Positions 5,473-63,901 of a stretch of DNA of 64,000 nucleotides are shown one piece after another. The notes below the pieces were generated by a model. It saw only the letters and a list, made by a program, of their open reading frames with translations, was not told the origin of the DNA and made no database searches. Made by a program: the position numbers and the translations under genes. The DNA comes from Hyperoplus lanceolatus. Its lineage: Eukaryota; Chordata; Actinopteri; Uranoscopiformes; Ammodytidae. The stretch is from positions 21,763,501 to 21,827,500 of the forward strand of contig CM049417.1 of NCBI GenBank assembly GCA_026929865.2. The letters run 5' to 3'. Positions within the stretch are counted from its first letter, which is position 1. Each line of letters starts with the position of its first letter.

Positions 5473-6842
5473 TAAATAGCCATGCATTGTATGGCATTAT
5501 GATATACTGTGTTAGAAAAAAAGAAAATAAAACTGAATAGTAAAAACAAATCTGATAAACTGATCAAATATCTTCAGATGCCCATCTGAAGTTATTTTAT
5601 CCTGAGCCTGACGGCTCAATGGGCCCATTAAAATATCAAAACTTCAATTAAACAAGAATAATTATATTTTACACTTTCTCTTTTGGTGCACACTCATGCA
5701 AGTAAACAATTCTAAAATTAAAAAGGGTGTGGGAAGGTGTGTTGACGCAAGAATTTTTCAGGCAGATGAGGTGAGTGTAGAAATAAGACCACACCCAATC
5801 TCTGAGGTTTATAAGCATGCATGTGTCGGTCTTATATTTAGTCTATTGTTTTGTGTTGTCTCGGCTTTGCCATGTCACTGCGTTGATTAAAAATCTTCCA
5901 CGTCCACCAGTATAATCAGGACATTTTCTCACCTCTAATCCGCACTGCCTGGTGACTGCACGTCTGTGTATAGAAGATAAAAACAATGAAAAATAGAATA
6001 TATATATATATATACAATAGAGGAAAGTCAAACATTACAGGTATATTTCCAAATTGAACTTGCAAACAGAAGTGTCAGTGTACCGACAGGTTTCTCAACA
6101 TTCCAGGTAAAGCAATTAAAGAGAAAAATACGAGATACGTGGCGTGACAAAAGGTATGAGTAGGGCCATGACTTTTCTTTGCACAGTATGTCAGATTGTT
6201 TCCACACTTCACAAAACAATGTCTACCACACTGACCTGATCAGGATTCACAATACATTTGTATTTATATTTTTTACTCAATTCACTGATGTATCAATTCA
6301 CAAAACAATCTTTTTTTTTTTTCAATAAAAAAAACAGCTTTTTCAAATTCTTGCTATATTAGTCATCTAAATTATATTATAATACTCCGTGAATTAAGTT
6401 TAAGTAAAAATACAGGATTTTTATGACATTGAGATCAGATTATTTAAATACAGCATACACTGATGGGTTTATACACCTTGGGGCATTTATTTTCTGACAC
6501 TAAGATAAAGTCTGTTAGGAAATAATAACAACATTTTTTATTTATTGAACACAAAAACAGTGACATCTGTTCAGTAAGCAGAAAAGGTAAAACCACAGTT
6601 AAAATAAATAATATTTTACTATTATTGTTTTGGTACACAATACTACACAGGTGTGTTCATGAGGAACTATTAGGTGACAGAAGATGAGGCGAATACCTGA
6701 ATGACAATGCTGCCTAAATGGGATCACACCCATGCATTTTGCATATTTATTCAACACCTGTACAGTATATGAAGTGCAGATGCAATGATACAGTCTAGTA
6801 TAATCATCCAGGGAATACTAATTTAGAGTACTAATGTTCACT
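4500..6842. other. intergenic region upstream of the Ly6-mucin gene
   Basis: AT-rich, with (GT)n at about 5001-5028 and (AC)n at 5353-5466. I see no exon. The promoter of the gene starting at 6843 must lie at the right end or further upstream if there is a 5' untranslated exon; an A/T-rich CATATTTATT at about 6739 is a possible but weak core element. Confidence 0.5.
5353..5466. repeat. (AC)n microsatellite
   Basis: About 114 bases of nearly pure AC dinucleotide repeat, with a few interruptions at the left edge. Confidence 0.95.
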
Positions 6843-6891
6843 ATGAAGTTAATCATTTCTCTGGCTCTGGTCTGGGCATTCTCCAGCACAA
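6843..6891 (+). CDS. exon 1: start codon and signal peptide
   Basis: ATG at 6843 opens a 16-codon exon with a charged N-terminus and a hydrophobic core (LIISLALVWAF), followed by a GTAAGT donor at 6892. It ends in phase 1, matching the next exon, whose first codon completes Thr and runs directly into the L-Q-C-Q-T-C start of the first LU domain. No other nearby ATG gives a signal peptide in phase. Confidence 0.8.
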
Positions 6892-9800
6892 GTAAGTCCA
6901 TGTTTATATTATTAGATTTTAAGAAGACACACGCTGTTTACAAGGACAGTATAGAATAATAAATAGAAAATAAATAACATCAAAATATTTTGATATGCAA
7001 GCTATGCAAACTCCTGCTAATTAATTTCTTATGATGTTTTATACATAGCTTGGTTTTTGTTTGCTATATCTTTGAAATACATTAATCTTTACAAATAAGG
7101 TTCTACATTTTCATAAAAAATCATTATTTCAATATTCCTTTATTACATTATGAACAAAACCCGTTTTGTATTACTGCATCAAGTTTATACAAAAATTACA
7201 ATTATAACATAGGGAGGAATAGGAAATTATTGCAGGTCATTTTTGACACATGTTGTGCATTAGAAGGTTAGAGTAGCAAAAATGAATTTTATTCTAAAGA
7301 TTTGAAAAGATAATGAAGATCACTCTTAAAGGTCTCATATTATGCACTTTCCTGTCAATTTTATATGGCCTTAGAGGTCCCTAATACTTATTTCTTTAGA
7401 TGTTTGCTGAAAAACCCGTTCAGATCATTTATTGTAGCAAGCCTGTATACTACCCTGATTTTCAGCTCATCTCAGGATGGCCCATTTTGGTGTGTGTCTC
7501 TTTAAAAAAATGTGTTGCTTTTTAGGCATTAGTAGACTGCTGTGGGTAATATAAATAGGTGATTATGAGCTAAAGCTGGATGCCCGAACTGGATGCTACA
7601 CAACACTGTCAGGCAAATAACCATTGAGAAAATTCATTTTAGAGTAACTACACAAGTAGCTTCCTATCCTTTGTCTTGTTATAAATGTGGCCTTATTAGA
7701 CTGCTGTGGGTAATATAAATTAGTGGGTTTATGAGCAAAAGGCTTCTGTGTTGGTTTATGCAACACTCAGCATACCTCTCTGTACTACAGTCATCTTGTC
7801 ACTTAGAGGGAAAAACAATATGGCTGTCGCTCGAAAGAAAAATCCTGAGGATCTGGGGGGCCGTGGACCAATAAGAAATAGGGGTGGGCTTATCATAGAA
7901 TTTTGCATGGTGGAATTTCCTGGTTATTCATATGAGGGGAGGTGGCTTGGCCGTTTGTGATGTCAAAAACATCCAGAATTCTGACCGGAGTATACTGGGT
8001 AGGTTTTCAGAAAGGAGGAGGGTGAGAAAAGGAGAGGGTTTTTTTGATACTTTGGCAGTAAGTAAGTAGAGTAGTACATTGTAAACCATTACAGTCTAAT
8101 GGTATTAATAATTATTTCAGTCAAGGAGAAGAATATAAGTATAAACTATTTTTCTCCCCTTACAGCTGGAGCACTACAGTGTCAAACTTGCATCGATCCA
8201 CAGGACAAGAAATGTAAAATAACAGCACCAGTTCCATGTCCCTCAGAGACAATGTGTGTAACAGCTTCCATTCGAGGTAATTGTTTCTTTATTTAATCGA
8301 CATTCAGTGAAATGCATGTACCGGAAAGCTACATTTGTTCAGACATTAACAAGCTTCACCGATTTTGTAGCTTTTGAAGGGTTTATTCAAACAACCCAAA
8401 TCTTCAAGGCATGTGCATCACCTTCCCTGTGTCCAGTCACAGGCACTTTTTCAGCCAACTTGGTTACAGGTGCAGTTTCCTCTAAGTGCTGCAACACAGA
8501 TAACTGCAACTCAGAAACTCTAGCTTGTGAGTACCTGCTGGATAACTAGCTGATTTAAGGGCATAGTGCCCACTATGCAACATTTTTATGAAAATATAAA
8601 TTATTGTCAAACATTAATAACCCCTCTCGATGATCACTTCTGCCCCACTAGAATATGTGGTGGTATGTTTATTTGCACAGCCCCCCTCCCTTTGGCTGTA
8701 TTATACTGTACATAGGAACATTTGTTGGTTTTGTTTTGTAAACACAAGATTCAGACATAGCTGAATTATGTGCACTGTGACTGCTCAATTGATTGACACC
8801 TAGAAACGTCCCGACAGAGCAAAGGAAACCATGACAAAGCAATATACAGCCGCAGGTAAACACACCACCACACATTCTAATGAGGCAGAAGTGATCATTG
8901 AGTCGGATTACCTTTGTGCGACTCTATACTTTTTAAGATAAGAACTGATTAAATACTGTAGAAAATGTTTTACTTTTGTCTTTTGGCACTTGAATGTTCT
9001 CTTTTGGTCAACTAAAATATTCTCAATTTTTTCAGTTCCTGAGGAACAGCCAGAAAATGGCTTAGAGTGTTTCACTTGTTCCACCTCTCAATGCACCTCT
9101 ACTGTAAAATGTAAGGGAGAGGAGGACAGATGTGTAAGATCAAGTGGTGAGTCTTTTGTGATACATTGTTAAATTAAATTGTCTCCAAAAATGATTTACC
9201 GCCTCAAAGTATTTCAAATAAATGACTGTGTGGGATGTCGAAAATTAAATAGTGGAGCCAAGTAATGTACAAACATATACAATTTTGGCTCTCTTTTACA
9301 TGAATACTTTGATCATAAGTTACATTACATTTATTGTCTACTGCCTCTCAGAGGTAAATTCAGTATGTTTACTGCCATAAGTTTATATGAGTGAATTAAA
9401 CAATGTAAAAATTACTCCACTGTAATCCACCTGTAATGAAATCTAATAACAAAAATTATTTATAATAATATAAGTCTTAAAGGGACCACTTCGCACAATA
9501 TGTACTTTTACTTTTAAATCTTTTCTTGCTCATTATACTTTTACTTATTTTACATTTTTAATGACAGCTCACTTGTAATACAGTATATTTATATATCAGT
9601 GATTCTTGAGAAGTCGGACAAAACAGGGTGCAATGTTGAAAAAATACAAACCCCATGTTTCGGCAAATTAAATTGCATGTACTGTATGTATCCAACATAT
9701 ACTAAGCTACTGAGCTAAGCTTTGACACAACCTCCCAGCTTTTGTTTTTTTCTACCGTCATTGGCCTATCACCACCGTCAGGTCCACTGTCAGATTTCCT

Positions 9801-12800
9801 GTCTGGCGGTGTTGACATATTTAACGTTTCTTAAACATAACAAATGGAATTTAGAAGCAATTTGGTTTTTCTGTTGATGTCAGGTGCTAGTATGAACTAC
9901 TTCAGGAAAATAAAATTATCAAAAAATTTCAAATAACTTCTTCAGAAGTTGTAAGTCGGTGTTGACATATCATGGTTGTGACGCATGACTTTCAAGATTC
10001 GGAATGTAAAATATTCTAAAACTACAACACTTATCAGAGCCTGCTGACTCTAATGTATCCTGCAGAGGTAGAATTTGACAAGAGGTCCTTCAAAGTGACA
10101 GCTGCCCCTCATTTCGCCTGATTTTATTACATTTTAATGAAATGTCTGACGGTGTTGACCTCAAGTGGTCCCACCACTTAGAAACCGTATAAAACATGAA
10201 TGTGTTGAAGAAAAACAGTTTTTATTGATATGAGATATTATTTAGTGTTGCTTTTGATGAAAAAAAACTTTAATGATCTTTTAAATCATTAAAGTACATT
10301 TTTAATTTTTATTGCATATGAAAGATTCAAACCTTCTCTGAGGACACACTGTTTTGGACGCTGTGAGAGGATAATATGTGTCATATATTTGACATAATAA
10401 TGATAAAATTAAATTTAAGGGGATAATTGTGCTCCAGACATTCTATTCTTAATCCCTAATAACATCTACAATTTTAAATGTTTTTAGTTTTAAACATAAC
10501 AGCAGTTAAATATGCAAGACGGCCTTTTGGCCCGGTTCTCAAGAATCACTGATATAGTAAATATATATTTGTATTCTATAGTTTAGTGACATTTATCCCA
10601 AATTCTGAATAAATATAAAATATTGGTATAAAAATATTGATTTTTTAAACATTTCCATTCATGTAAATATAATGCCAATTTCTGACAAAATAGCATTAGT
10701 CTGTTACATTTTTTTCAGAGCTCTATATTCCAATCGGGGTGAAGATTGATGAAATTTGTCCAGGAATATGCTGATTGATCTCAATATAACATATTTAACC
10801 CGTTTTTCATGAACAGTGATGATTGGGACGAACACATATCAATCCTTTGGCTGCACATCTCAAAACCTGTGTGCAGTTGCTCCACTTCTAGGTACACTAA
10901 ATATCACACCGAGTGTCAGTATCATCATAAGTGGACCAGAGTGTTGTGAAGGAAGTTTTTGTAATGCTGTTCCAACAACTACCCCTATGACAACAACCAT
11001 CCCCCCCACAACTAAAACAACAACAACAACAACAACAACTTCTGCCCCACCAACATCAACCGCTCCCCCACCACCACCAACAACAACAACAACAACTGTT
11101 GCCCCAACAATGACTTCTGCCCCAACTACAACAACGGCTCCAACAACAACAACAACAACAACAACAAAAACAACAACAACAACCGCTACCCCATCAACAA
11201 CTCCTGGAGCACTTCAATGTCAAACTTGCATCAATCCACAGGACAAGAAATGTAAAGAAACAGCACTAGTTTCATGTTCCTCAGAGATGATGTGTATAAC
11301 AGCTTCCATTCGAGGTAGTCTTTTCTTTATTTAATCCACAAATGTTCAGTAAAATGCTTTCACTGCAAAGCTACATTTTTCTGAAATTAACAAACTCCAC
11401 TGGTGTTGTAGTTTTTAAAGGGCCAATTGAATCAACGCAAATCTGGAAGTCATGTGCATCGCCTTCCCTGTGTCCAGCCACAGGCACTCAGAATAATTCA
11501 GCACACTTTAGTGCTTCAGGTGCAGTTTCAACTACTAAGTGCTGCAACACAGATGACTGCAACTCAGAAACTCTACCTTGTGAGTACAGATGGATATCTA
11601 CCTTATAAAAGATAAGAAATTATCATTTAGGTAAAATTGTTCTACAGCTGTTTTTAGATACTTAAATGTTCTCTTATGATCAACTAAAATGTTCTCTACT
11701 TTTTCAGTTCCTGAGGATCAGCCAGAAAATGGCTTAGAGTGTTTCACTTGTTCTCAATGCACCTCTACGGTAAAATGTAAGGGAGAGGAGGACAGATGTG
11801 TACGAGCAAGTGGTGAGTTTTTTGTGCTACCTAGTTGAAGGAAAATGTCTCCAGGCTTTACATTTCTTATCCACTGTATCTCAGTGGTAAATACAGTATT
11901 TTTCCTGCCATATGATGAGTGAACTGAGAGATTAACATTTTTGTTTTATTCTATTGACTACTGACCACTTACTTTACTGACCACTACCATTTATTTTAAA
12001 TTCTGAATAAATATATTGTGTTAATAGCATTTTCATTATTTGATGTAAAGTTGACAAAACAAAACTTTTTGTTGTTTTCTACACATTCTTTCCCAGAGCT
12101 GAATGTTTGAGTGAGATTAAGATTGACAAACATTTTCCAGGAAATTTGCTAATTGATATCAATATAATGCAGTAAAACTGTTTTTCATAAACAGTGATGA
12201 TTGGGACGAACACATCTCCGGCCTTTGGCTGCACATCTAAAAGCCTCTGCGAAGTTGCTCCCCTTCTAAGTACACTAAATATCACACAGGATGTGCGTAC
12301 CATCATTAGTGGACCACACTGTTGTGAGGGAAGTTTTTGTAATGCTGTTCCAACAACTGCTGCTGCTGCAACAACAACAACAACTGTTGCCCAAACAACA
12401 ACCCCTGACCCAAAAACCTCAACCGCTACCCCCACAACAACAACCGCTGGCCCTACAACAACAACTGTTTCCCAAACAACAACAACCGCTGGCCCTACAA
12501 CAACAACTGTTGCCCAGACAACATCAACCGCTGCCCCAGCGACTACAACCACTACCCCAACAACAACAACTGGTACTCCCACAACAACAACCACTGCCCC
12601 GACTACAACAACCGCTGCCCCAACAACAACAACAACTACTCCAACAACAACTACTGCCCCCACAACAACAACTACTGCAACAACAACAACAACTACTGCC
12701 CCAACAACAACAACAACAACTACTCCAACAACAACAACAACAACAACTACTGCCCCAACAACAACAACAACTACTGCCCCAACAACAACAACTGCTGCCC

Positions 12801-15800
12801 CCACAACAACAACTGTTGCCCAAACAACAACAACAACAACCCCTGCCCCCACAACAACAACTGTTGCCCAAACAACAACAACCGCTACCCCATCAACAAC
12901 TCCTGGAGAACTTCAATGTCAAACTTGCATCAATCCACAGGACAAGAAATGTAAAGAAACAGCACTAGTTCCATGTACCTCAGAGATGATGTGTATAACA
13001 GCTTCCATTCGAGGTAGTCTTTTCTTTATTTAATCCACACATTTTCAGTGAAATGCATTAACTGCAAAGCTAAAATTGTTCTGAAATTAACAAACTCCAC
13101 CGATTTTGTAGCTTTTGAAGGGCCAACTGAATCAACGCAAATCTGGAAGTCATGTGCATCGCCTTCCCTGTGTCCAGCCACAGGCACTCAGATTAATTCA
13201 GCCAACTTTAGTGCTTCAGGTGCAGTTTCAACTACTAAGTGCTGCAACACAGATGACTGCAACTCAGAAACTCTACCTTGTGAGTACAGATGAATATCTA
13301 GATTATTTAAAATAAGAAATCATAGTTTAGGTAATAGTGTTCTACAGCTGTTTTTAGGTAGGCTACTTAAATGTTCTCTTTTGGTCAACTAAAATGTTCT
13401 CTATTTTTCAGTTCCTGAGGCTCAGCCAGAGAATGGCTTAAAGTGTTTCACTTGTTCAAACTCTCAATGCACCTCTATGGTAAAATGTAAGGGAAAGGAG
13501 GACAGATGTGTACGAGCAAGTGGTGAGTTTTTTGTGCTACCTAGTTGAAGGAAAATGTCTCCAGGCTTTACATTTCTTATCCACTGTATCTCAGTGGTAA
13601 ATACAGTAATTTTCCTACCACATGATGAGTGAACTAAAAGATACATTTTTTTCCTTTATTCTATTGACTGCTGACAACATTTATTTTAAATTCTGAATAA
13701 ATATATTGCTTTTAATATCATTTTCATTATTTGATGTAAAATTGACAATACAAAAAAATGTGTTGTTTTCAATCATGTTTTTTCCCAGGGATCTATATTT
13801 TGAGTGAGATTAAGATTGACATGCCTTTTCCAGGAAATTTGCTAAATGATATCAATATAATGCAGTAAAACTGTTTTTCATAAACAGTGATGATTGGGAC
13901 GAACACATCTCCGGCCTTTGGCTGCACATCTAAAAGCCTGTGCGAAGTTGCTCCCCTTCTAAGTACACTAAATATCACACAGGATGTGAGTACCATCATT
14001 AGTGGACCACACTGTTGTGAGGGAAGTTTTTGTAATGCTGTTCCAACAACTACTGCCCCAACAACAACCGCTGCCCCGACAACAACAACTAATGCCAACA
14101 AACACAACAACTGCCCCCTGCCCCCCAAAACCAACAACCGCTGCCCCCACAACAACAACCGCTGGCCCTACAACAACAACTGTTGCCCAAACAACAACAA
14201 CCGCTGCCCCAACAACAACTGCTGCCCCAACGACAACAACTGCTGCCCCAGCAACTACAACCACTACCCCAACAACACACAACAACAACTACTGCCCCAA
14301 CAACAACAACTACTGCCCCGACTACAACAACCGCTGCCCCAACAACAACAACTACTGCCCCAACAACAACAACTCCAACAACAACAACTACTCCAACAAC
14401 AACAACTACTCCAACAACAACTGTTGCCCAAACAACAACAACTACTCCAACAACAACTGTTGCCCAAACAACAACAACTGCCCCCACAACAACAACTGTT
14501 CCCCCAACAACAACAACAACAACAACAACCCCTGCCCCCACAACAACAACTGTTGCCCAAACAACAACAACCGCTACCCCATCAACAACTCCTGGAGAAC
14601 TTCAATGTCAAACTTGCATCAATCCACAGGACAAGAAATGTAAAGAAACAGCACTAGTTCCATGTACCTCAGAGATGATGTGTATAACAGCTTCCATTCG
14701 AGGTAGTCTTTTCTTTATTTAATCCACACATTTTCAGTGAAATGCATTTCCTGCAAAGCTAAAATTGTTCTGAAATTAACAAACTCCACCGATTTTGTAG
14801 TTTTTGAAGGGCCAACTGAATCAACGCAAATCTGGAAGTCATGTGCATCGCCTTCCCTGTGTCCAGCCACAGGCACTCAGATTAATTCAGCCAACTTTAG
14901 TGCTTCAGGTGCAGTTTCAACTACTAAGTGCTGCAACACAGATGACTGCAACTCAGAAACTCTACCTTGTGAGTACAGATGGATATCTAGATTATTTAAG
15001 ATAAGAAATTATAGTTTAGGTAATATTGTTCTACAGCTGTTTTTAGGTAGGCTACTTAAATGTTCTCTTTTGGTCAACTAAAATGTTCTCCATTTTTTCA
15101 GTTCCTGAGGCTCAGCCAGAGAATGGCTTAAAGTGTTTCACTTGTTCAAACTCTCAATGCACCTCTACGGTAAAATGTAAGGGAAAGGAGGACAGATGTG
15201 TACGAGCAAGTGGTGAGTTTTTTGTGCTACCTAGTTGAAGGAAAATGTCTCCAGGCTTTACATTTCTTATCCACTGTATCTCAGTGGTAAATACAGTAAT
15301 TTTCCTACCACATGATGAGTGAACTAAGAGATACATTTTTTTCCTTTATTCTATTGACTACTGACAACATTTATTTTAAATTCTGAATAAATATATTGCT
15401 TTTAATATCATTTTCATTATTTGATGTAAAGTTGACAATACAAAAAAATGTGTTGTTTTCAATCATGTTTTTTCCCAGGGCTCTATATTTTGAGTGAGAT
15501 TAAGATTGACATACCTTTTCCAGGAAATTTGCTAAATGATATCAATATAATGCAGTAAAACTGTTTTTCATAAACAGTGATGATTGGGACGAACACATCT
15601 CCGGCCTTTGGCTGCACATCTAAAAGCCTGTGCGAAGTTGCTCCCCTTCTAAGTACACTAAATATCACACAGGATGTGCGTACCATCATTAGTGGACCAC
15701 ACTGTTGTGAGGGAAGTTTTTGTAATGCTGTTCCAACAACTACTGCCCCAACAACAACCGCTGCCCCCACAGCAACAACCGCAGCCCATAAAACAACAAC

Positions 15801-18800
15801 TGTAGCTCCGACAACAACAACTTCTGCCCCGACAACAACAACTGCTGCCCCCACAACAACCGCTGCCCGAACGACTACAACCGATGCTCCAACAACAACA
15901 ACCGCTGCCCCAACAACAACAACTGCTGCCCCCACAACAACAACCACTGCCCCAACGACTACAACCGATGCTCCAACAACATCAACCGCTACCCCCACAA
16001 CAACAACTGCAGCCCCCACAACAACAACTGCTGCCCCAACAACAACTGCTGCCCCAACGACAACAACTGCTGCCCCAACAACTACAACCGCTACCCCAAC
16101 AACAACAACTGCTGCCCCAACTACAATCGCTGCGACAACATCAACTGCTGCCCCAACGACAACAACTGCTGCCCCAACAACGACAATCGCCTCCACAACA
16201 ACTGCTGCCCCGACAATAACAGCTGTTGCCCCGACAATAACAGCTGTTGCCCCAACGACTACAACCGGTTTCCCAACAACAACAACCCCTGCCTCTACAA
16301 CAACTGCTGCCCTTACAACAACAACCCCTGCCTCTACAACAACTCCTGCCCCCACAACAACAACCGCTACCCCAACAACAACTGCTGGCCCTACAACAAC
16401 AACTGTTGCCCAAACAACAACAACTGATGCTCCAACAACGACAACTGCTGCCCCCACAACAACAACCGCTACCCCAACAACAAGTGCTGGCCCTACAACA
16501 ACAACTGTTGCCCTAACGACAACAACTGCAGCCACAACAACGACAACCATTGCCCCAACTATAACAACTGCTGCCACAACTACAACTACAATCGCTGCCA
16601 CAACATCAACTACTGCCCCAACGACAACATCTGCTGCCCCAACAACGACAATCGCCTCCACAACAACAACTGCTGGCCCTACAACAACAACCGCTACCCC
16701 ATCAACAACTCCTGGAGCACTTCAATGTCAAACTTGCATCAATCCACAGGACAAGAAATGTAAAGAAACAGCACTAGTTCCATGTTCCTCAGAGATGATG
16801 TGTATAACAGCTTCCATTCGAGGTAGTCTTTTCTTTATTTAATCCACACATATTCAGTGAAATACATTTCCTACAAAGCTAAAATTGTTCTGACATTAAT
16901 AAACCCCCCCAATTTTGTAGCTTTTGAAGGGATAACTCAAACAACCCAAATCTGGAAGTCATGTGCATCGCCTTCCCTGTGTCCAGCCACAGGCACTCAG
17001 ATTAATTCAGCCAACTTGGGTGCTTTAAGAACAGTTTCAACTACTAAGTGCTGCAACACAGATGACTGCAACTCAGAAACTCTACGTTGTGAGTATAGAT
17101 GGATATCTAGCTTATTAAAGATAAGAAATTATCTAATATTGTTGTACTTCTGTTTTTAGGTACTTAAATATTCTCTTTTGGTCAACTAAAATGTTCTCTA
17201 TTTTTTCAGTTCCTGAGGATCAGCAAGAAAATGACTTAGAGTGTTTCACTTGTTCCAAATCTCAATGCACCTCTACAGTAAAATGTAAGGGAGAGGAGGA
17301 CAGATGTCTTCAATCAACTGGTGAGTCTTTTGTGCTACATAGTAGAAGAATATTGTCTCCAAAGAGGTCTCATAAGTATTTCAAATAAATGACTACGTGT
17401 GGGAAGTAGAAAATGAAATGTTTGAGCCAAATAATATACTTTTAGTCAAGCACGACATATATATATATACCATTTTGAGTTTCTTTTACCTGAATATCTA
17501 GGCCTTATGTTTCTTATCCACTGCATCTCAGTGGTAACTACAGTATTTTTCATGCCATATGATGAGTGAACTAACAGATTAACGTTTTTCTTTCATTCTA
17601 TTGACTACTGACAACAATTATGTTAAATTCTGAATAAATATATTGCTTTTAATAGCATTTTCAATATTTGATGTAAAGTTGACAATACAAAAAAATATGG
17701 TGTTGTCTGTTAATTTTTTCCCAGAGCTCTATATTTTGAGTTGGGTTAAGATTGACAAACATTTTCCAGGAAATTTGCTAGTTGATATGAATATAATGCA
17801 GTAAAACATTTTTTTCATTAACAGTGATGATTGGGAGAAACACATTTCCGGCGTTTGGCTGCTCATCTAAAAGCCTGTGCAAAGTTGCTCCTCTTTTAAG
17901 TACACTAAATATCACACAGGATGTAAGTACCATTAGTGGACCACACTGTTGTGAGGGAAGTTTATGTAATGCTGTTCCAACAACTACTGCCGCGACGACA
18001 ACAACAACCCCTACCCCCACAACAACAACCGCAGTCCCCACTACTACAAACACCTCCCCAACAACAACAACAACTACTGCACCCACATCAACAACCGCTG
18101 CCCCAACGACTACAACCGATGCTCCAACAACATCAACCGCTACCCCCACAACAACAACTGCAGCCCCCACAACAACAACTGCTGCCCCAACAACAACTGC
18201 AGCCCTAATGACAACAACTGCAGCCCCAACAACGAAAACCGCTGCCCCAACAACGACAACTGCTGCCCCAACTACAATCGCTGCGACAACGACAACTGCT
18301 GCCCCAACGACAACAACTGCTGCCCCAACAACGACAATCGCCTCCACAACAACTGCTGCCCCGACAATAACAGCTGTTGCCCCAACGACTACAACCGGTT
18401 TCCCAACAACAACAACCCCTGCCTCTACAACAACTGCTGCCCTTACAACAACAACCCCTGCCTCTACAACAACTCCTGCCCCCACAACAACAACCGCTAC
18501 CCCAACAACAACTGCTGGCCCTACAACAACAACTGTTGCCCAAACAACAACAACTGATGCTCCAACAACGACAACTGCTGCCCCCACAACAACAACCGCT
18601 ACCCCAACAACAAGTGCTGGCCCTACAACAACAACTGTTGCCCTAACGACAACAACTGCAGCCACAACAACGACAACCATTGCCCCAACTATAACAACTG
18701 CTGCCACAACTACAACTACAATCGCTGCCACAACATCAACTACTGCCCCAACGACAACATCTGCTGCCCCAACAACGACAATCGCCTCCACAACAACAAC

Positions 18801-20760
18801 TGCTGGCCCTACAACAACAAATGTTGCCCAAACAACAACAACTGCTGCCCCAATGACAACAACCGCTGCCCCAACAACAACAATTGGTCCCCCCACTACA
18901 ACAACCATTGCACCAACTACAACTACTGCGGCCCCCACAACAACTGCAGCCCTAACGACAACAACTGCAGCCACAACAACGACAACCATTGCCCCAACTA
19001 CAACAACTGCTGCCCCAACATCAACTGCTGCCCCAACGTTGACATCCACCGCCCCAACAACGACAATCGCCTCCACAACAACAGCTGTTGCCACTACATC
19101 AACTGCTGCCCCAACGACAACAACTGTTGCCCCCCTAACAATAACCGATGCTCCCACAACTGCCACCCCTTCAACCACCACACCTGCTGTTCCCAAAACA
19201 ATAACCGCTACCCTAATATCAACTTCTATGACTGCTGCACCTACAACTGCAGCTCCTAGAACTGTCACACCTACAGCTGTAGCAATATTCACACAAAAGG
19301 TGTCTTTCAGATCTCTTCTGGCCACATTTACAAGTGACTTGCTGAATTCATCATCCATAGCTTTTGAAAATCGAGCCTCAATGATAGAAACACAGGTAAG
19401 TCTCTCCCTCAAAAGTAAGTCTGCTGGGAATTCGCAGTATCATAGCTTTGATTGAATAAAGCACCAATAACATACCAGTTTGTACTGCTGCTTTAATGCA
19501 GGTACAGAGAAAGAAAATAAGGGAGTATCATTGTGCCATTAGTTGAGGAAATATGAAATAAATTTCACAGTATTTATTGTTTATTTTTTATTGGTAAATG
19601 AAACTGTTACATATCTTTACCCCACAATTTTATTGTTATAACTGTAGCTTGTAGTTATAAATTACAATATTTTTTTTTACATTTAATACTCCATTGTTCC
19701 ACATAGTCTTGTTTGTGAGTACTAACAAGTACTTTATTCTAAACAATAGAATTTTAACTGTATATACTGTGTGTGCAGCTGCCAGGATCAGCACAAGTAC
19801 CAGGCACTAAGGAGAATAGTCATTAGGGCATGTTAAACTTGCACATACATTTTATAACAAACAATGTAGTAATTCAAACATAGTGAGCTACACTTAGGAA
19901 ATGAATGTTAAACAGCTCATGTATTGTTTTAAACACAGTTTTGGTGCAAATCAATTATTGTCTTCCTGCCTTTCTGTCTCCTGGCCTCAGTTTTTTTTTC
20001 CGCACTACTACGGAAAGAACAGAAAAACTTTTTTTTAAACAAGAAAATGTACATCTAGCAGGTGTACATACATATAAAAAAGTCAAACATTTCCTGAAAA
20101 AGATTTATGACAGAGAGATCATGTTGAATATATCAAGACAAATGCTGCACAGACAGTACAAACTACATAACTGTATCACTACACAACTTATTTCATATAC
20201 ACACAGTTCAGTTTTACATGAAAAAATATATAGAATTCGAAAGAAAAAACATTAAATTTTCTCTTTCTGCAGCTGGGACTTTTGTTCCAATCGGAATTCA
20301 TTTCTTTCAAGTTCTTGAAAGTCACTGCATTCAGGTAATATTTTAAGACTTATCTTATCACAATTTTAGAATATTTGCCTAGATCTGATATTTCTATTAT
20401 TTTTTGTTTCTCCTAATGCAGAAGTGGATCGGTTGTCAATGTAATGAACGCTGGCTTTGAAGGCACAAATGTTCCTAATACCACTCAGATTACAAATGTT
20501 TTGATCAGTGCATCTTCAAATGTCATTGGATTTGATATTGAAGGCAGCTCCATTCTTGTCAATGGCAGATGTAAGCATTATGGAGTGCTACTTGATCAAA
20601 CATTTCAAAAGTTGCTCCCGCAAAATTACAATTTGTTGAACTAATGAGTTGTTTCCTTTTCTCCTCATTTACAGCTTCAAGTGGAGTGAGCCACAAGATC
20701 AGTCTTGTCACTGCATCTTGCCTTGGACTGCTGTCATGGCTGCTGTCAAGCCAGTCATAG
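6843..20760 (+). CDS. Ly6/uPAR-repeat, mucin-like, SEA-domain, predicted GPI-anchored protein (20 exons)
   Basis: Predicted coding exons: 6843-6891, 8166-8276, 8371-8526, 9036-9146, 10817-11314, 11412-11579, 11708-11812, 12195-13013, 13112-13279, 13412-13522, 13888-14702, 14801-14968, 15102-15212, 15578-16822, 16921-17088, 17210-17320, 17825-19395, 20273-20334, 20422-20570, 20675-20760. The product has a signal peptide (MKLIISLALVWAFSS), ten Ly6/uPAR (LU) domains in five pairs, five Thr/Pro/Ala linkers inserted after each pair, a SEA domain and a hydrophobic C-terminus. Each LU domain has 10 cysteines, starts L-x-C-x-x-C and ends CC-x-x-x-x-CN. All introns up to the SEA region are phase 1. 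The linkers contain almost no serine, so O-glycosylation would be on threonine; N-I-T and N-F-S sequons recur in the LU domains. The likely role is as a glycosylated epithelial or mucosal surface protein, an inference from domains only. Exon 13888-14702 is two bases out of frame (see findings). I do not recognise a named orthologue. Confidence 0.85.
8166..11190 (+). CDS. unit 1 of the Ly6-mucin gene (exons 2-4 and 5' part of exon 5)
   Basis: Exons 8166-8276 and 8371-8526 together form LU domain A (L-Q-C-Q-T-C to CCNTDNCN). Exon 9036-9146 and the first part of exon 10817-11314 form LU domain B (L-E-C-F-T-C to CCEGSFCN). The rest of exon 5 is a linker of about 80 Thr/Pro residues, the shortest of the five. 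This unit is the most diverged from the others, and its B-domain intron has grown by a DNA transposon at 9596-10552. Confidence 0.8.
9596..10552. mobile_element. 957-bp DNA transposon/MITE with TA target duplication, in intron 4
   Basis: The termini are inverted repeats TCAGTGATTCTTGAGAA (left, from 9596) and its reverse complement ending at 10552, flanked by TA at 9594-9595 and 10553-10554, as in Tc1/mariner-type elements. The interior has no long open frame, so it is non-autonomous. It sits between the two exons encoding the halves of LU domain 1B. Confidence 0.75.
11191..12880 (+). CDS. unit 2 of the Ly6-mucin gene (3' part of exon 5 to linker of exon 8)
   Basis: LU domain A is built from the end of exon 10817-11314 (LQCQTCINPQDKKC) and exon 11412-11579. 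LU domain B is built from exon 11708-11812 and the start of exon 12195-13013. Exon 11708-11812 is two codons shorter than its paralogues (one Ser/Ser-like spacing lost between the second and third Cys), but all cysteines remain. The following linker of roughly 185 residues is Thr with Pro, Ala and occasional Val-Ala-Gln-Thr spacers. Confidence 0.8.
12881..14575 (+). CDS. unit 3 of the Ly6-mucin gene (3' part of exon 8 to linker of exon 11)
   Basis: Same plan as unit 2, with exons 13112-13279 and 13412-13522 between the shared exons. Its coding and intron sequences are nearly identical to those of units 2 and 4, which points to recent tandem duplication or gene conversion. The linker in exon 13888-14702 changes reading frame twice, near 14085-14100 and near 14268-14285, so the exon has 815 bases rather than a multiple of three. 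Confidence 0.75.
14576..16710 (+). CDS. unit 4 of the Ly6-mucin gene (3' part of exon 11 to linker of exon 14)
   Basis: Exons 14801-14968 and 15102-15212 complete LU domain A and start LU domain B. Exon 15578-16822 (1,245 bases, in frame) carries the end of domain B, a linker of about 325 residues and the start of the next LU domain. The linker is more complex than that of units 2-3, with Ala-Ala-Pro, Asp-Ala-Pro and Ile-Ala-Ser variants. Confidence 0.8.
16711..19260 (+). CDS. unit 5 of the Ly6-mucin gene (3' part of exon 14 to linker of exon 17)
   Basis: Exons 16921-17088 and 17210-17320 and the start of exon 17825-19395 form the last LU pair. The linker is the longest, about 430 residues, and shares a block of about 540 bases (18283-18822) with exon 14 (16151-16692). 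It ends in less repetitive Thr/Ala/Pro sequence before the SEA domain. Confidence 0.8.
19285..20570 (+). CDS. SEA domain of the Ly6-mucin gene (end of exon 17, exons 18-19)
   Basis: The sequence VSFRSLLATFTSDLLNSSS at the end of exon 17825-19395, then exon 20273-20334 (ends FLKVTAF), then exon 20422-20570 (R-SGSVVNVMNAGFEG, later VIGFDIEGSSILVNG) form a SEA domain in the expected order. The FRSGSVVN junction holds the G-S-V-V motif at which mucin SEA domains self-cleave between Gly and Ser. Intron phases here change to 0, 2 and 1, unlike the uniform phase 1 of the LU region, consistent with a separately acquired module. Confidence 0.8.
20675..20760 (+). CDS. last exon: C-terminal GPI-type signal
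   Basis: The exon encodes SSSGVSHK, then ISLVTASCLGLLSWLLSS, then Gln-Ser and a TAG stop at 20758-20760. A cluster of small residues (possible omega site), a short polar spacer and a terminal hydrophobic stretch with no cytoplasmic tail is the layout of a GPI attachment signal. A single-pass membrane segment with no tail is the alternative. No AATAAA was seen close downstream. Confidence 0.7.
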
Positions 20761-21819
20761 TATCAGCAATGATTTCCATTTGAAAAACCATCAACCCAAG
20801 ATCCATCGTGATAGTCTTCATGTTGAACAGCTTCCGTTTAACTATCAAATTCAACTTTGCACTAATGACAGTTTGTCCAACTCAACATGTCACTGTCCAG
20901 GACCTTTAGCCAAACAGAATAACACACAAAATAGTGAAGGAGGTTCAAAATTGACTATAGCTCACAGCCAGAAAACATTGCATCACAATTCACTGGATGT
21001 GCTGAAAAAAGTTCAAGCTCTGTAAAATGCACATGCAATTTTATGTGATTTTTCAAAGATGGGAAGGTTGAATTTTTAATTTTTTAATTGTAAGCAATGC
21101 TTAGGGCGCACTTACACTAGGCCATCTGTAACGTTCCCAAGTGTTTGCCCCCTAATATCTAGTACGTTTCAGCAGTGTGAGGCCACCCATACTCAAGCAT
21201 GGTACACTTCCTTGGCCATAGCAAACTTAGGAGAGGTGTACTCAGGCCAAAGTACAGATGCTAATGAAGCCGACTTGTGCACAAGCACGCGCATTGATGG
21301 CGATCCTTACGTAAATTTATTGAGGATGGATGCACATAGTTGGTGAGACATTTAAATTTCCGCTGCCTTAAGGAGGGTTCACACCAAAAGTGATGCTCGC
21401 GATGGCTATCGCTCTTAACACCCCTAACACGCCGCTTGGTCATATTTTGGTTCATCGCGTCCTTCGCCTCTCTTGCGCCTAGATTCTTTCCCTCTATTTT
21501 ATTTCCCCTAATCAACCATGGCTGAGATCAGACCCGGCACAACAGTGTGCATGTCGGCACAGAAACAACAATAACAACAACTGTTCCAAAAGACAAAGCA
21601 AAAGTCATTGGTGAGCTTTATTGCTTAGTGATCTAGTGTTGATCAAGGCCCTTTTCAGTTGATGTTATTTTGGGATTGGTTGCGAGGACTGGGGGAGTGG
21701 AGGGAGGTTGGACAGATTTACGTATGAGTTGTGATAACAAATTTACTGCTTTGGAAATCCCATGGACCTGATGATATTCTCTTAGCGATATAGACTTAGA
21801 TTCTCACTGAGGGAAGTCG
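20761..21819. other. 3' flank of the Ly6-mucin gene, no further gene
   Basis: 20761-21080 is probably 3' untranslated sequence. From about 21100 a GC-richer block (starting GGGCGCACTTACACTAGGCC) looks like a dispersed MITE-type repeat, but I could not define both ends. Open frames here are short and unrecognised. Confidence 0.4.
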
Positions 21820-22119
21820 TCATCAGAATCAGCTTTATTGGCCAGGTTTGAGTAAACAAACAAGGAATTTGACTTCGGCAACCATTTGCTCTCCAAGTAC
21901 AACATACACTAAAAACAATTAAAAATACTATTAAGTAAACAGTATTACGGGGGCGCCTTTAGCTCAGTCGGTAAGGCGTCCCCCTCCCGGGCCGGGCCCA
22001 GCAGCAGACCCGGGTTCGATTCCCGCCCGCGGTCGTTCTCTGCATGTCACTCCCCTCTCTTTCCCATTTCACCTCTGTCTCTCTGCACTATCAATAAAGC
22101 ATAAAAATGCCAAAAAAAT

Positions 22120-22150
<31 letters not shown>

Positions 22151-22640
22151 AGTATAACAAATACACAACAACAGTTCAAGAGATGGTAAAAATGGTGCAA
22201 TATCAGTCGGTTAGTGATTAAGATTTAAATAAAATATAAATATCTCTATATATACGGTCAGATTCAAGATAACAATATAAATATAGTGCAAGGCAGATCA
22301 GTGCAGAGGCAGTGTAACAATATTTGAATAGTAAGTTTGAGATAGTAAGTTTCTCCTAAAATCCACTGACATCTCTAGAGTCTTCTTGTTATTTAACTCC
22401 AGGTGGTTCTGACTGCACCACTCGACCAGCTGGTCCACCTCCTGTCTGTAGGCAGACTCATCACCATCCTGGATCAAACCAATGACGGTGGTGTCATATG
22501 CGCACTTGATGAGTTTTACGAACGGGTTCTTTGAGGTGCTGTCATTGTTGTAGAGGGAGAAGAGCAGCGGGGAGAGGACACACCCCTGTGGCGCGCCAGT
22601 GCTGATGGACCGGGTTTTGGATGTCTCATATCAGCAAACT
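21820..22640 (-). mobile_element. 5'-truncated L2/Rex1-type LINE fragment, interrupted by a SINE
   Basis: On the minus strand, 22640-22330 reads as part of a reverse transcriptase: APQGCVLSPLLFSLYNND, then a catalytic-box region reading CAYDTT where YADDTT is expected, then TVIGLI and WCSQNHLELN. The AATCAGCTTTATTGGCC segment at 21828 on the plus strand is a typical fish LINE 3' end. The first catalytic Asp is changed to Tyr, so this copy is dead. The SINE at 21946-22146 splits its 3' part. Confidence 0.75.
21946..22146 (+). mobile_element. tRNA-derived SINE with 9-bp target duplication
   Basis: It has a tRNA-like head with an A box (TAGCTCAGTCGGTAAGG, about 21960) and a B box (GGGTTCGATTC, about 22013), a pyrimidine-rich body, CAATAAAGC and a poly(A) tail. 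It is flanked by AAACAGTAT at 21937-21945 and 22147-22155. The insertion lies within the LINE fragment. It is not a functional tRNA gene. Confidence 0.9.
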
Positions 22641-27648: not shown

Positions 27649-30600
27649 TCATAGCTCCTCTTTCTTCTTTAAGATTATGTTTCGTACCATTTCAGCTATT
27701 TTGGGTCGGATTTCTCTGACGGAAACTTTTGGTCCCCAAGCATCCACCACTTTGCCGTTTACACCGATTAGATACTTCCAGAAATTCCAGTCAGGCTCCT
27801 TTCCTGAAGATTCTGCAGAGAGGGAAAACAATAAAAAAGAAAGTTAAAGGCCCTTCAACCTGAAACACACTGCAGCCGGACCTGAAGCTGTCCAGCTTGA
27901 TTCCACAAAGGGATTTTAAACTCATTGTAAGGGCGATGGAAAAAGCACACTTGGAAACTTGTTCTTATTTTTTAGTTTTCCTGCACTTTCATTTAAATAT
28001 TGTATGTATGCACTATTGTTAAATCTGTCTGTCTGTAACTGATTGTTGTTGTATTGTCCAAAACAGGTCTCTCTTGAGAATGAAACCCCGTGTCTCAATA
28101 AGACTACCTGTGTAAATACAATTTGGAGTAAAACATTTTTTTAAAACAATGTTCAACCTATGTTCTCACATCCAAAACACTTCCACCTCTCTTTTTTCTC
28201 TTCTTCCAAACTTGTTGTAGTAAAGAGGAATATTAGACGCTCCCGTGATCATCTTTTTGAATCCACACAATACAAACATATTCCTTTAACAAACCTCTGC
28301 CCAGCCGCAAACTATGGCTGACCCTGTGCTCTGACCTCCTCCAAAGTGTGGTAACTTGAGAGAGGTGAGAGATATGCAAAAAACTTGTGTACATTGTGTA
28401 AATGTACTAATAAAGTAACTTAACAACATAAAAACTCTGGCAAAGCCACATCTCACTCACCGACAAGGTACTTGTACACATTGTTGGTTCCTATTCCAAC
28501 AACAGCGATTTTACTGAACAGAGGAAAAGAGGCTCCGTAGACCCGCCGCACAAAGCTGTCGATCTCCTTGTCGCTGCCGGGCTCCTGCTGGCCGAACTGG
28601 TTGCAGGGGAAGGCCAGCACGTTGAAGTGATACGGTCCCAAGTCCCGCTGGAGCTGCTGCAGGTCTTTGTAGTGCTCCTCAGTGAAGCCACATTCACTGG
28701 CCACATTCACCACCAGGGACACCTGCAGCCACAGAAAGGCACTACAGTAAATCATCACAGTCGTGACAGCAGTTGTGCTACCTTGCGTTTATCTCACATA
28801 TGAATTTTTCTGCTTGGTTGGGTTTTGGGGCTCTTGACTTTAACGCTCATCCTCACAGACGAGGTAAACTTTTCGCCATATCTAACACAGGTGCTTTATT
28901 TTATTATTCAGATTTTCGTGGCTTTTTCGGTCAATATATTCACAATAATCCCATGGATAATGAATTTTAATTATTTTTGATTTAGTCTATGTATGTTAAA
29001 TATGTTGGTAGGTTAAGGGTTAACGTCTACATTTTATCACTTCTCCATAAAAAAATGTCTGTGTGTACATATAGTAATATTTAAACGTTTGCAAGTGCTT
29101 ATTTTATCTGTGACTTGACAGGCAAATACAATTTATTATTGGTATCATATCCTTTAAGAGCAACTAATATCAATTTGGAAAGTGATTTACTGCCTGTCAT
29201 GAAGGCATGTCTTGAGGCTTTTTTAGCCAGGTGTGGTCGGCTGTAATGAGGAGTGTGCTTTGCTGATCGTGTGCTCAGAAATTTTATTGGCGTCACACCT
29301 TATACTTGACGCACACTCTTAAGTCACAGCAGCAATGTGACAAGTTAATAAAACACAGTGGTGGAAGGCATAAGTACATTTACTATTATTTAATTGTAAC
29401 ATTAAATAATAGTAAATGTTTACTTTTGACCAGCAGCTCCTGCTTCTTTTACAGTTTCAGAATTTACACAAAGAATGTGATACACTTATGTTATAAAACA
29501 TAAGCTTGGTTAAATAATAAACCCCAACTTCATGGGCTTGTAAACTCTCACAAAAAAAAGCAGTTATCTGGTCACAATACACTAGACTCAGGGAAAGTTT
29601 CTTCCCAAAGGCGTCCATTATGTTTCAGTTTATTGCATCTGTTCACACACTGTATCTACATGTATAGGCTACACCCACATCTATATTCAACTAGTTTAAA
29701 TATTTAGTTAAATGTGTCCATAATAATATGTACACATAAAGCCACAGATTTAAGATTTTCATTGCCAACAGCTGCTCCTCTTCTGTATTTGCTGTGCGTC
29801 TAATAAAGAAAAGAAAATGTAAGGCTCTCACTTGTATGTTTCACATATGATCTATGAGCCGGTAGTAGCTCTAACAAGTGACTTTCCCTTAAACAGAGTT
29901 TTTTTGTTTGTTGAATAACCGTTATATTACTAAAGAGGTAAATACTGTATGAACCAATATTTCACAAAGTAAACAAAAATCATATGAAAAAACCAACATA
30001 TATATAACAAATACAGTATCTCACAAAAGTGAGTACACCCCTCACATTTCTTCAAATATTTCATTATATCTTTCCATGCGACAACACTGAATAAATGACA
30101 CTTTGATACAATGTCAAGTAGTCAGTGTACAGCTTGTATAACAGTGTAAATTTACTGTCCCCTCAAAATAACTCGACACACAGCCATTAATGTCTAAACT
30201 GCTGGCAACAAAAGTGAGTACACCCCTAAGAAGAAATGTCCAAATTGGGCCCAAAGTGTCAATATTTTGTTTTGCCATCATTATTTTCCAGCACTGCCTT
30301 AACCCTCTTGGGCATGTAGTTCACTAGAGCTTCACAGGTTGCAACTGGAACCCTCTTCTACCCATTCATGACGACATCAAGGAGCTGGTGGATATTAGAG
30401 TCCTTGGCTCCTCTATCTCCCGTTTTAGGATGCCCCAAAGATGCTCAATAGGGTTTAAGACTGGAGACATGCTTGGCCAGTCCATAACCTTTACCCTCAG
30501 CTTCTTTAGCAAGCCAGTGGACGTTCGGAGGGTGTTTGGGGTCGTTATCATGTTGCAGTACTGCCCTGTGGCCCAGTTTATGAAGGGAGGGGATCATGCT

Positions 30601-52255: not shown

Positions 52256-63901
<11,646 letters not shown>

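What the first reader, a model, noticed from the sequence alone, without database searches (positions are those of the whole stretch)
6843..20760. A giant Ly6/uPAR - mucin - SEA - GPI protein gene with five double-Ly6 units
Sequence shows ten 10-Cys Ly6 domains in pairs, each pair followed by a Thr/Pro/Ala linker, then a SEA domain and a GPI-type tail. Ly6/uPAR proteins are normally small (one to three domains) and SEA domains normally belong to membrane mucins or proteoglycans. The combination would make a lollipop-like array of three-finger domains on mucin stalks at the cell surface. I know of no named protein with this plan; a role in mucosal or epithelial protection is inference.
Basis: partly seen in the sequence, partly recalled or inferred. 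Interest (0 to 1): 0.85.

Follow-up and report, generated by a model that had tools for sequence, protein, structure and literature searches.

The report
Fish cell-surface mucin with Ly6 pairs
A large fish gene, one of a small family, strings pairs of three-finger Ly6 domains on sugar-ready threonine-rich stalks and ends in a SEA domain and a lipid anchor, a domain plan for which we found no published description, although this copy's reading frame is broken in one stalk as sequenced.

Summary
Twenty GT-AG exons (6843-20760, +) encode a signal peptide, five Ly6/uPAR (LU) pairs keeping all 100 cysteines, Thr-rich linkers, one SEA domain and a GPI-type tail. Linker exons fuse neighbouring units, so this is one gene. 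As sequenced, however, linker 3 (exon 11) has two frame breaks; the literal product stops at 14655-14657 (1021 aa, three pairs), without SEA or tail.

The same genome holds three paralogous array genes. Two have closed frames: D (12 LU, 2952 aa, no SEA) and A (4 LU, 2 SEA, 1390 aa). Gene A shows LU-mucin-SEA-GPI in an intact frame. The window gene's last ~1.7 kb is collinear, introns included, with an SEA mucin gene on another contig and carries that family's tail: apparently a fusion made inside a Thr-rich linker.

Best reading: a GPI-anchored, LU-bearing glycocalyx mucin; a mucosal role is inference and expression is untested. No paper with this plan was listed in nine searches. Class: new variant of a known kind.

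The parts
6843..6891 (+). exon 1: signal-peptide exon (MKLIISLALVWAFSST), phase 1 at its end
   Evidence: a like exon found at the head of paralogs D, A and B
8166..8276 (+). exon 2: LU domain 1, first half (5 Cys)
8371..8526 (+). exon 3: LU domain 1, second half
9036..9146 (+). exon 4: LU domain 2, first half
10817..11314 (+). exon 5: LU domain 2 second half + Thr-rich linker 1 (79 aa) + LU domain 3 first half, one exon, open
11412..11579 (+). exon 6: LU domain 3, second half
11708..11812 (+). exon 7: LU domain 4, first half
12195..13013 (+). exon 8: LU domain 4 second half + linker 2 (186 aa) + LU domain 5 first half, open
13112..13279 (+). exon 9: LU domain 5, second half
13412..13522 (+). 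exon 10: LU domain 6, first half
13888..14702 (+). exon 11: LU domain 6 second half + linker 3 + LU domain 7 first half; BROKEN frame (two shifts)
14090..14290 (+). stretch of linker 3 that holds both frame breaks (near 14095 and near 14275)
14655..14657 (+). TAA that ends the literal reading of exons 1-11 (1021 aa)
14801..14968 (+). exon 12: LU domain 7, second half
15102..15212 (+). exon 13: LU domain 8, first half
15578..16822 (+). exon 14: LU domain 8 second half + linker 4 + LU domain 9 first half, open
16921..17088 (+). exon 15: LU domain 9, second half
17210..17320 (+). exon 16: LU domain 10, first half
17825..19395 (+). exon 17: LU domain 10 second half + linker 5 + first part of SEA, open
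   Evidence: the same exon make-up in gene A
19223..20907 (+). 3' segment collinear (exons, introns, 3' flank) with the SEA mucin gene at C20:1858.5-1860.3 kb; its start marks the likely fusion point
20273..20334 (+). exon 18: SEA, middle part
20422..20570 (+). exon 19: SEA, FR-S-GSVV motif and last part
20675..20760 (+). exon 20: GPI-type tail SSSGVSHKISLVTASCLGLLSWLLSSQS and stop
6045..7300 (+). 5' flank, exon 1 and start of intron 1, alignable in blocks to the 5' ends of A and B (77-83%); 6649-6930 alignable to D (88%; only 274 nt upstream of D's ATG had been fetched)

Best explanation
The window holds one member (gene W) of a small family of GPI-anchored 'LU-mucin' genes. Shown in sequence: a signal peptide; tandem units of two complete 10-Cys three-finger domains; Thr-rich linkers joined to them in single exons; in W and A a SEA domain; a hydrophobic GPI-type tail. 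W's 3' end (SEA and tail) comes from a second kind of gene, the SEA mucins, probably by recombination inside a Thr-rich linker. Inferred: the linkers are densely O-glycosylated and stiff, so that pairs of three-finger heads are held at intervals above the membrane as part of the glycocalyx. The SEA domain cleaves itself at its FRSG|SVV motif and stays as a non-covalent joint that can let the outer part go under strain. The heads bind a ligand, as LYPD8 binds flagellated bacteria or uPAR binds urokinase. The likeliest site is an epithelial surface, where many identical heads give avidity against microbes or their products. As sequenced, this copy is interrupted in linker 3. Either the assembly has errors in a CAA-type repeat, or this allele makes a shorter product; skipping exons 9-11, 10-12 or 11-13 would still give an in-frame protein with four LU pairs.
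For: Gene model, splice sites and phases. LU matches over cut-off in 3 of 3 units scanned; uPAR domains are the nearest solved relatives, E=8.7e-6, 3.8e-4 with a family profile. SEA: plus relatives over cut-off; nearest solved SEA is that of ADGRF1, E=4.3e-4 single sequence, 3.3e-7 with a profile; FR.GSV invariant in the 3 SEA sequences aligned. Family: 79 exon matches in the genome (a lower bound, since only best candidates are scored); those with E of 1.4e-9 or better lie only in four array loci and one single-pair locus on C9. Paralogs D (20 exons, 2952 aa, 6 pairs) and A (12 exons, 1390 aa, 2 pairs, 2 SEA) have one closed frame each with all boundaries GT-AG; for A the start of the third SEA exon was chosen among two GT-AG-compatible offsets as the one that keeps the frame. 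320 of 320 Cys kept in 16 units. 16 of 18 linkers in frame: W 4 of 5, D 6 of 6, A 4 of 4, B 2 of 3. Fusion: from 19223 on the 3' segment matches the C20 SEA gene at 77% and 90% in two long blocks, introns included. W's tail exon recurs at 10 other places, none of them in the LU match list, while the tail of A, B and D was found at just those three genes. LYPD8, a GPI-anchored LU protein of colon epithelium, binds flagellated bacteria and inhibits their motility (PMC5725809, abstract read).
Against: The window gene itself is not open. No RNA or protein evidence was available, so expression, tissue, glycosylation, cleavage and anchoring are untested. The window SEA is under Pfam's cut-off on its own. 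dN/dS between units is high (0.70-0.82 against unit 1, 0.78-1.28 in the other pairs that could be scored), so constraint outside the cysteines is weak or the heads evolve fast. Between W and the C20 SEA gene the SEA and tail exons (87-93% identical) are no better kept than the short introns 18 and 19 and the 3' flank (94-95%); only intron 17 is lower (79%), so this pair shows no clear constraint on SEA. No other species could be searched for the architecture. The GPI signal was judged by eye and hydropathy only.
Confidence: 0.6

Rival explanations
1. Gamete or egg-coat recognition: the LU array acts as a repeated binding surface in fertilisation, in the manner of Bouncer/SPACA4, and the tandem units are homogenised within a species.
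For: LU proteins do serve in fish fertilisation (Bouncer, PMC6600238 section 8). dN/dS between units is 0.70-1.28 and units 3 and 4 are 96-100% identical, introns included, as in fast, concerted evolution.
Against: Bouncer is a single-LU protein. The long Thr-rich stalks and the SEA end resemble epithelial mucins. No expression data.
Confidence: 0.2
2. W is a dying or null copy: the frame breaks in linker 3 are real and fixed, and only D and A (and perhaps B) work.
For: Two frame breaks and a premature stop as sequenced; high dN/dS; no clear constraint on the SEA exons against the C20 gene.
Against: The 19 other exons, 38 splice sites and 100 Cys are intact. For example, between units 2 and 4 exons differ less than introns (exons 96-99% identical, introns 89-92%). 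Single breaks of the same kind also occur in the last linker of B and in a linker of the C20 SEA gene, and the breaks seen sit in low-complexity linkers, where assembly errors are likeliest.
Confidence: 0.25
3. The region is two genes: an LU-array gene ending in the linker and a separate SEA-GPI gene.
For: Both kinds exist separately: D and B have LU without SEA, and SEA genes elsewhere have no LU match. W's 3' end derives from the second kind.
Against: Exon 17 carries LU half, linker 5 and SEA start in one open frame of 1571 nt. Gene A has the same kind of exon in a closed 1390-aa frame.
Confidence: 0.05
4. A neural or general cell-surface regulator, like the zebrafish double-LU proteins expressed in developing brain.
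For: [quoted passage not shown]
Against: Those are described as having two LU domains; none is described there with mucin stalks or SEA.
Confidence: 0.1

Closest known systems
Teleost double-LU GPI-anchored proteins (zebrafish chromosome 21 cluster)
   Same: Two consecutive LU domains, both with 10 Cys, GPI anchor, standard LU exon structure (PMC6600238 section 8)
   Different: One pair only as described; no Thr-rich linkers, no array and no SEA mentioned in that section
uPAR (PLAUR), C4.4A (LYPD3), CD177, PINLYP
   Same: Multi-LU proteins with the LU exon structure kept for each added domain (PMC6600238 passages); uPAR domains are the nearest solved structures
   Different: 2-4 LU domains (PMC6337849 passages); mammalian multi-LU proteins lack the 7-8 disulfide in the first LU (PMC6600238 section 8), whereas here every LU has 10 Cys; no SEA (recalled)
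Drosophila multi-LU proteins
   Same: Very long LU arrays occur, 2 to 44 LU domains (PMC6600238 section 7)
   Different: No mucin linkers or SEA mentioned in that section; distant lineage
Membrane mucins with SEA (MUC1, MUC3, MUC12, MUC13, MUC16, MUC17; recalled)
   Same: Thr/Ser/Pro-rich stalk followed by a SEA domain, in some with a G-S cleavage site (recalled)
   Different: Those have a transmembrane helix and cytoplasmic tail and no LU domains (recalled); here a GPI-type tail
SEA-mucin genes with a GPI-type tail in the same genome (C23:13.20-13.31 Mb, C23:21.66-21.71 Mb, C20:1.86 Mb, C2:34.63 Mb)
   Same: SEA exons and tail exon; the C20 copy is collinear with W's 3' end
   Different: No LU exon there in the match list; these genes were not read from end to end

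Membership tests
Ly6/uPAR (LU) domain superfamily | profile match to UPAR_LY6 over the curated cut-off | tested here: met
   3 of 5 window units scanned, 3 of 3 over cut-off
Ly6/uPAR (LU) domain superfamily | 10-Cys signature with a CC and a final CN | tested here: met
   20 of 20 Cys in each of 5 window pairs and each of 16 family pairs
Ly6/uPAR (LU) domain superfamily | three-finger fold and disulfide pairing | not testable with these tools
uPAR orthologue (PLAUR) | three LU domains, the first with 8 Cys (PMC6337849 passages) | tested here: not met
   LU in pairs, each with 10 Cys; urokinase binding not testable
SEA domain proteins | profile match to SEA over the curated cut-off | tested here: inconclusive
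   window copy 23.4 bits against 26.4; aligned relatives 37.6 and 38.7 bits
SEA domain proteins | self-cleavage motif (G-S; motif recalled) | tested here: met
   FRSGSVV in exon 19; FR.GSV invariant in the 3 aligned SEA sequences; cleavage itself untested
Membrane mucin | long Thr/Pro/Ser-rich O-glycosylation domain | tested here: met
   Thr 52-61% in 11 of 12 complete linkers of D, A and B, 39% in A's last segment; 46 of 79 and 118 of 186 Thr in W linkers 1 and 2; glycosylation untested
Membrane mucin | transmembrane helix with cytoplasmic tail | tested here: not met
   the reading ends within a few residues of the hydrophobic stretch in W, D and A, and in B's tail frame
GPI-anchored protein | C-terminal hydrophobic tail after small residues and a polar spacer, with no cytoplasmic part | tested here: met
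   W: hydropathy 1.98 over the best 14 residues, no charge in it; no trained predictor was available

The most novel reading that the evidence does not exclude
A modular surface-protein system in fish: LU-pair cassettes (phase 1-1 exons) and SEA/GPI cassettes are swapped and multiplied between gene loci through recombination in shared Thr-codon repeats, giving a combinatorial family of GPI-anchored mucins whose heads, stalk lengths and anchors vary from gene to gene, perhaps between individuals (unit number, open or broken linker 3), as an innate surface-recognition repertoire.
Probability: 0.3. Interest if true: 0.75.

Novelty: new variant of a known kind. Interest (0 to 1): 0.6.

Why it matters
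It joins two kinds of surface protein that are kept apart in the families known to us: three-finger LU receptors and SEA mucins. It also shows the joining in progress, with relatives in the same genome that have only LU, only SEA, or both. If expressed, these genes would give fish epithelia (or eggs) a tethered array of many near-identical three-finger heads, a natural avidity device comparable in idea to LYPD8. The family also gives a system for studying how Thr-repeat mucin domains promote exon shuffling. The broken linker in W is a warning that gene models in such repeats need read-level checks.

Tried and rejected
Rejected: two or more separate genes (linker exons fuse neighbouring units; gene A has a closed LU-SEA frame). 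Rejected: a uPAR orthologue (all LU domains have 10 Cys). Rejected: chance ORFs (splice sites, Cys, four genes). The Pfam family search of the genome rang nowhere, not even in its controls, and was taken as uninformative because LU domains are split by introns; the protein search was used instead. The bacterial, viral, phage, plasmid and metagenome collections were not searched, since the sequence is from an animal. Nine paper searches (9 of 10 allowed) listed no paper whose title or abstract start describes LU plus mucin plus SEA. Searches held 0 papers; some searches listed all they held (12, 2, 11); some searches listed 20 of 163, 12 of 58 and 12 of 49, so unlisted papers were not seen. The library is open-licence PMC text only, and no annotated fish protein database could be searched, so the protein may well carry an automatic name such as 'mucin-like' elsewhere. 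The species was not identified; 'fish' is inference from the LU type, the genes seen and the genome size.

Mistakes of mine: the second protein was typed with a middle stretch that I had guessed, not read; its score is not used, and searches replaced it with sequence read from the loci. The third protein of that call (C9) was typed with small errors (one residue at an exon joint and the first residue); one search gives the reading used. The query (and the E2 query) is window unit 4 with one residue near its start taken from other units.
Full report
What is there. The gene model was rebuilt from the raw sequence. Exon 1 (6843-6891) carries the start and a signal peptide. Then come five units; each unit has two LU domains, and each LU domain is split over two exons with phase-1 joints, the usual LU gene plan. 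The second exon of the second LU of a unit runs on, without a splice site, through a Thr-rich linker and into the first exon of the next unit. The last such exon (17825-19395) runs from LU through linker 5 into the SEA domain, which is finished by exons 18 and 19; exon 20 holds the tail. All 38 internal splice sites are GT-AG. Within the window, LU and SEA queries found only these copies (other rows had E-values of 0.39 or worse, apart from cross-matches inside the array and the gene's own short tail exon at 0.024).

Domain tests. Pfam UPAR_LY6 matched the three LU pairs scanned (units 1, 4 and 5 of 5) at 3e-13 to 3e-10, over the cut-off. The nearest solved relatives of unit 1 are uPAR domains (8.7e-6); a profile of seven pairs gave the same answer at 3.8e-4. 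SEA was matched at 6.9e-5 but under the Pfam cut-off. Two related SEA domains read from the same genome are over the cut-off (2.7e-9 and 1.2e-9) and align with the window copy at 67% and 45% identity. ADGRF1's SEA is the nearest solved structure (4.3e-4 alone, 3.3e-7 as a profile).

The correction. Exon 11 is 815 nt, not a multiple of three. The Thr frame is left near 14095, resumes one frame over, and is left again near 14275. Read literally, the product stops at 14655-14657 with 1021 residues: three LU pairs and an Asn/Gln-rich off-frame tail. The other four linker exons of W have no stop in the Thr frame, against 4-23 in each of the two other forward frames. Single breaks of the same kind occur in the last linker of paralog B and in a linker of the SEA gene on C20. 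Over the four LU genes, 16 of 18 linkers are in frame. Sequence error or slippage in these repeats is the simplest reading, but a broken allele is not excluded. Since the lengths of exons 9, 10, 12 and 13 are multiples of three, skipping exons 9-11, 10-12 or 11-13 would remove one unit together with exon 11 and leave an in-frame product (worked out).

A family, not a single oddity. The assembly of the window is held (806.7 Mb, 527 contigs). A search with one LU pair gave 79 exon matches, a lower bound. Those with E of 1.4e-9 or better lie in four array loci (W; A at C23:15537-15549 kb; B at C23:15560-15568 kb; D at C20:1715-1742 kb) and a single-pair locus on C9. D is a closed frame of 20 exons and 2952 aa with six pairs and no SEA. 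A is a closed frame of 12 exons and 1390 aa with two pairs, then linker-SEA-linker-SEA-linker-tail. B has three pairs and a long last linker whose tail lies in another frame. All 16 pairs keep all 20 Cys; the chance of that, given 82 invariant among 175 ungapped columns, is 6e-8 by a simple hypergeometric count that ignores relatedness. In the tree, units of all four genes fall in one well-supported group of 11 (100/98), with W1 and D1, D3, D4, D5 outside it (the root is only a midpoint, and the C9 row is long). So at least two unit types probably existed before W and D split, and later copies were added locally: units 3 and 4 of W are 96-100% alike, introns included.

A fusion. The 5' ends of W, A and B are alignable in blocks from about 800 nt before the ATG (77-83%), and D from about 190 nt before (88%; only 274 nt upstream of D's ATG had been fetched). 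The 3' end of W is not like theirs, save that A's SEA exons match at 72%. From 19223, inside linker 5, to 20907 it is collinear with an SEA gene on C20 (1858.5-1860.3 kb, minus strand) at 77% and 90% in two long blocks, introns and 3' flank included; only matches starting after 19100 were printed at this end, because Thr-codon repeats match everywhere. W's tail exon recurs at 10 other places (C23:13.20-13.31 Mb, 5; C23:21.66-21.71 Mb, 3; C20, 1; C2, 1; E from 1.1e-6 to 0.018), none of them in the LU match list. The tail of A, B and D was found at just those three genes. The simplest history is an LU-array gene whose last linker recombined with the linker of an SEA mucin gene. Gene A shows that an LU-SEA union also exists with the other tail, so either there were two unions or D and B lost SEA; this was not resolved.

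Selection. dN/dS between units is 0.70-0.82 against unit 1 and 0.78-1.28 in the other scorable pairs (3 v 4 has no synonymous change). Cysteines, splice sites and, but for exon 11, the frame are kept while other residues change. Between W and the C20 SEA gene, SEA and tail exons (87-93%) are no more alike than introns 18 and 19 and the 3' flank (94-95%), and only intron 17 is lower (79%), so constraint on SEA is not shown by this pair. Whether loops are under positive selection was not tested.

What it probably does. Shown: a secreted, multi-headed, Thr-rich, tail-bearing design in two open genes of the family (A, D). From knowledge of the families (recalled): Thr/Pro-rich stretches of this kind are O-glycosylated in mucins; SEA domains with a G-S site cleave themselves; LU domains bind proteins. 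Inferred: the protein is a glycocalyx component with spaced LU heads at an epithelial surface. LYPD8, a GPI-anchored LU protein, acts against flagellated bacteria in the colon (PMC5725809, abstract). The gamete and neural rivals cannot be excluded without expression data.

Known or new. A review (PMC6600238, sections 7 and 8 read; other passages found by term) reports Drosophila proteins with 2 to 44 LU domains and a zebrafish cluster of seven GPI-anchored double-LU proteins with 10-Cys domains. A study of the plasminogen system (PMC6337849, passages) found no three-LU gene from cartilaginous fishes to coelacanths, two-LU proteins being the closest, but for one three-LU gene in Lates calcarifer. 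Neither describes LU with mucin linkers or SEA in the parts I saw. Nine paper searches listed no paper on such a union, as far as titles and abstract starts show. The arrangement is thus, as far as I could look, a new variant built from known kinds, not a new kind.

Noticed in passing
G000 C23:13.20-13.31 Mb, C23:21.66-21.71 Mb, C20:1.86-1.89 Mb, C10:13.08-13.10 Mb, C2:34.63 Mb: A multigene family of SEA mucins in the same genome (57 exon matches at E up to 5, W and A included), some with what looks by eye like a second kind of SEA domain and with Thr- or Ser-Ala-Gly-Thr-rich linkers of hundreds to over a thousand residues.
   Followed up: partly
about C23:15567 kb (gene B) and about C20:1865 kb (SEA gene): Single frame breaks in other Thr-rich linkers of the same assembly, like those in window exon 11: suggests repeat-related sequence errors or slippage.
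   Followed up: partly
window 28456-28788 (-): Exon of a GPX7-like glutathione peroxidase (Pfam 9.5e-31; PDB GPX7 1.4e-42).
   Followed up: partly
window 59673-60089 (-) and 53961-54434 (-): Exons matching the STIM SOAR domain (2.1e-12 and 1.9e-8), so a STIM-family gene lies on the minus strand there; the ORF at 52259-52888 (-) resembles a STIM2 C-terminus by recall only (no Pfam match).
   Followed up: partly
window 21952-22137: Short repeat next to the gene; its best copies (87-92% identical) lie in introns of D and near B. It looks like a tRNA-derived SINE by recall, though ARAGORN found no tRNA.
   Followed up: partly
window 22301-22630 (-): Reverse transcriptase fragment (RVT_1 1.4e-7), probably a LINE remnant.
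   Followed up: no
C9:27006672-27008166 (-): A single LU pair with 20 Cys, 63% identical to unit 1, without a Thr-rich linker in view: a candidate for the ancestral one-pair gene.
   Followed up: partly
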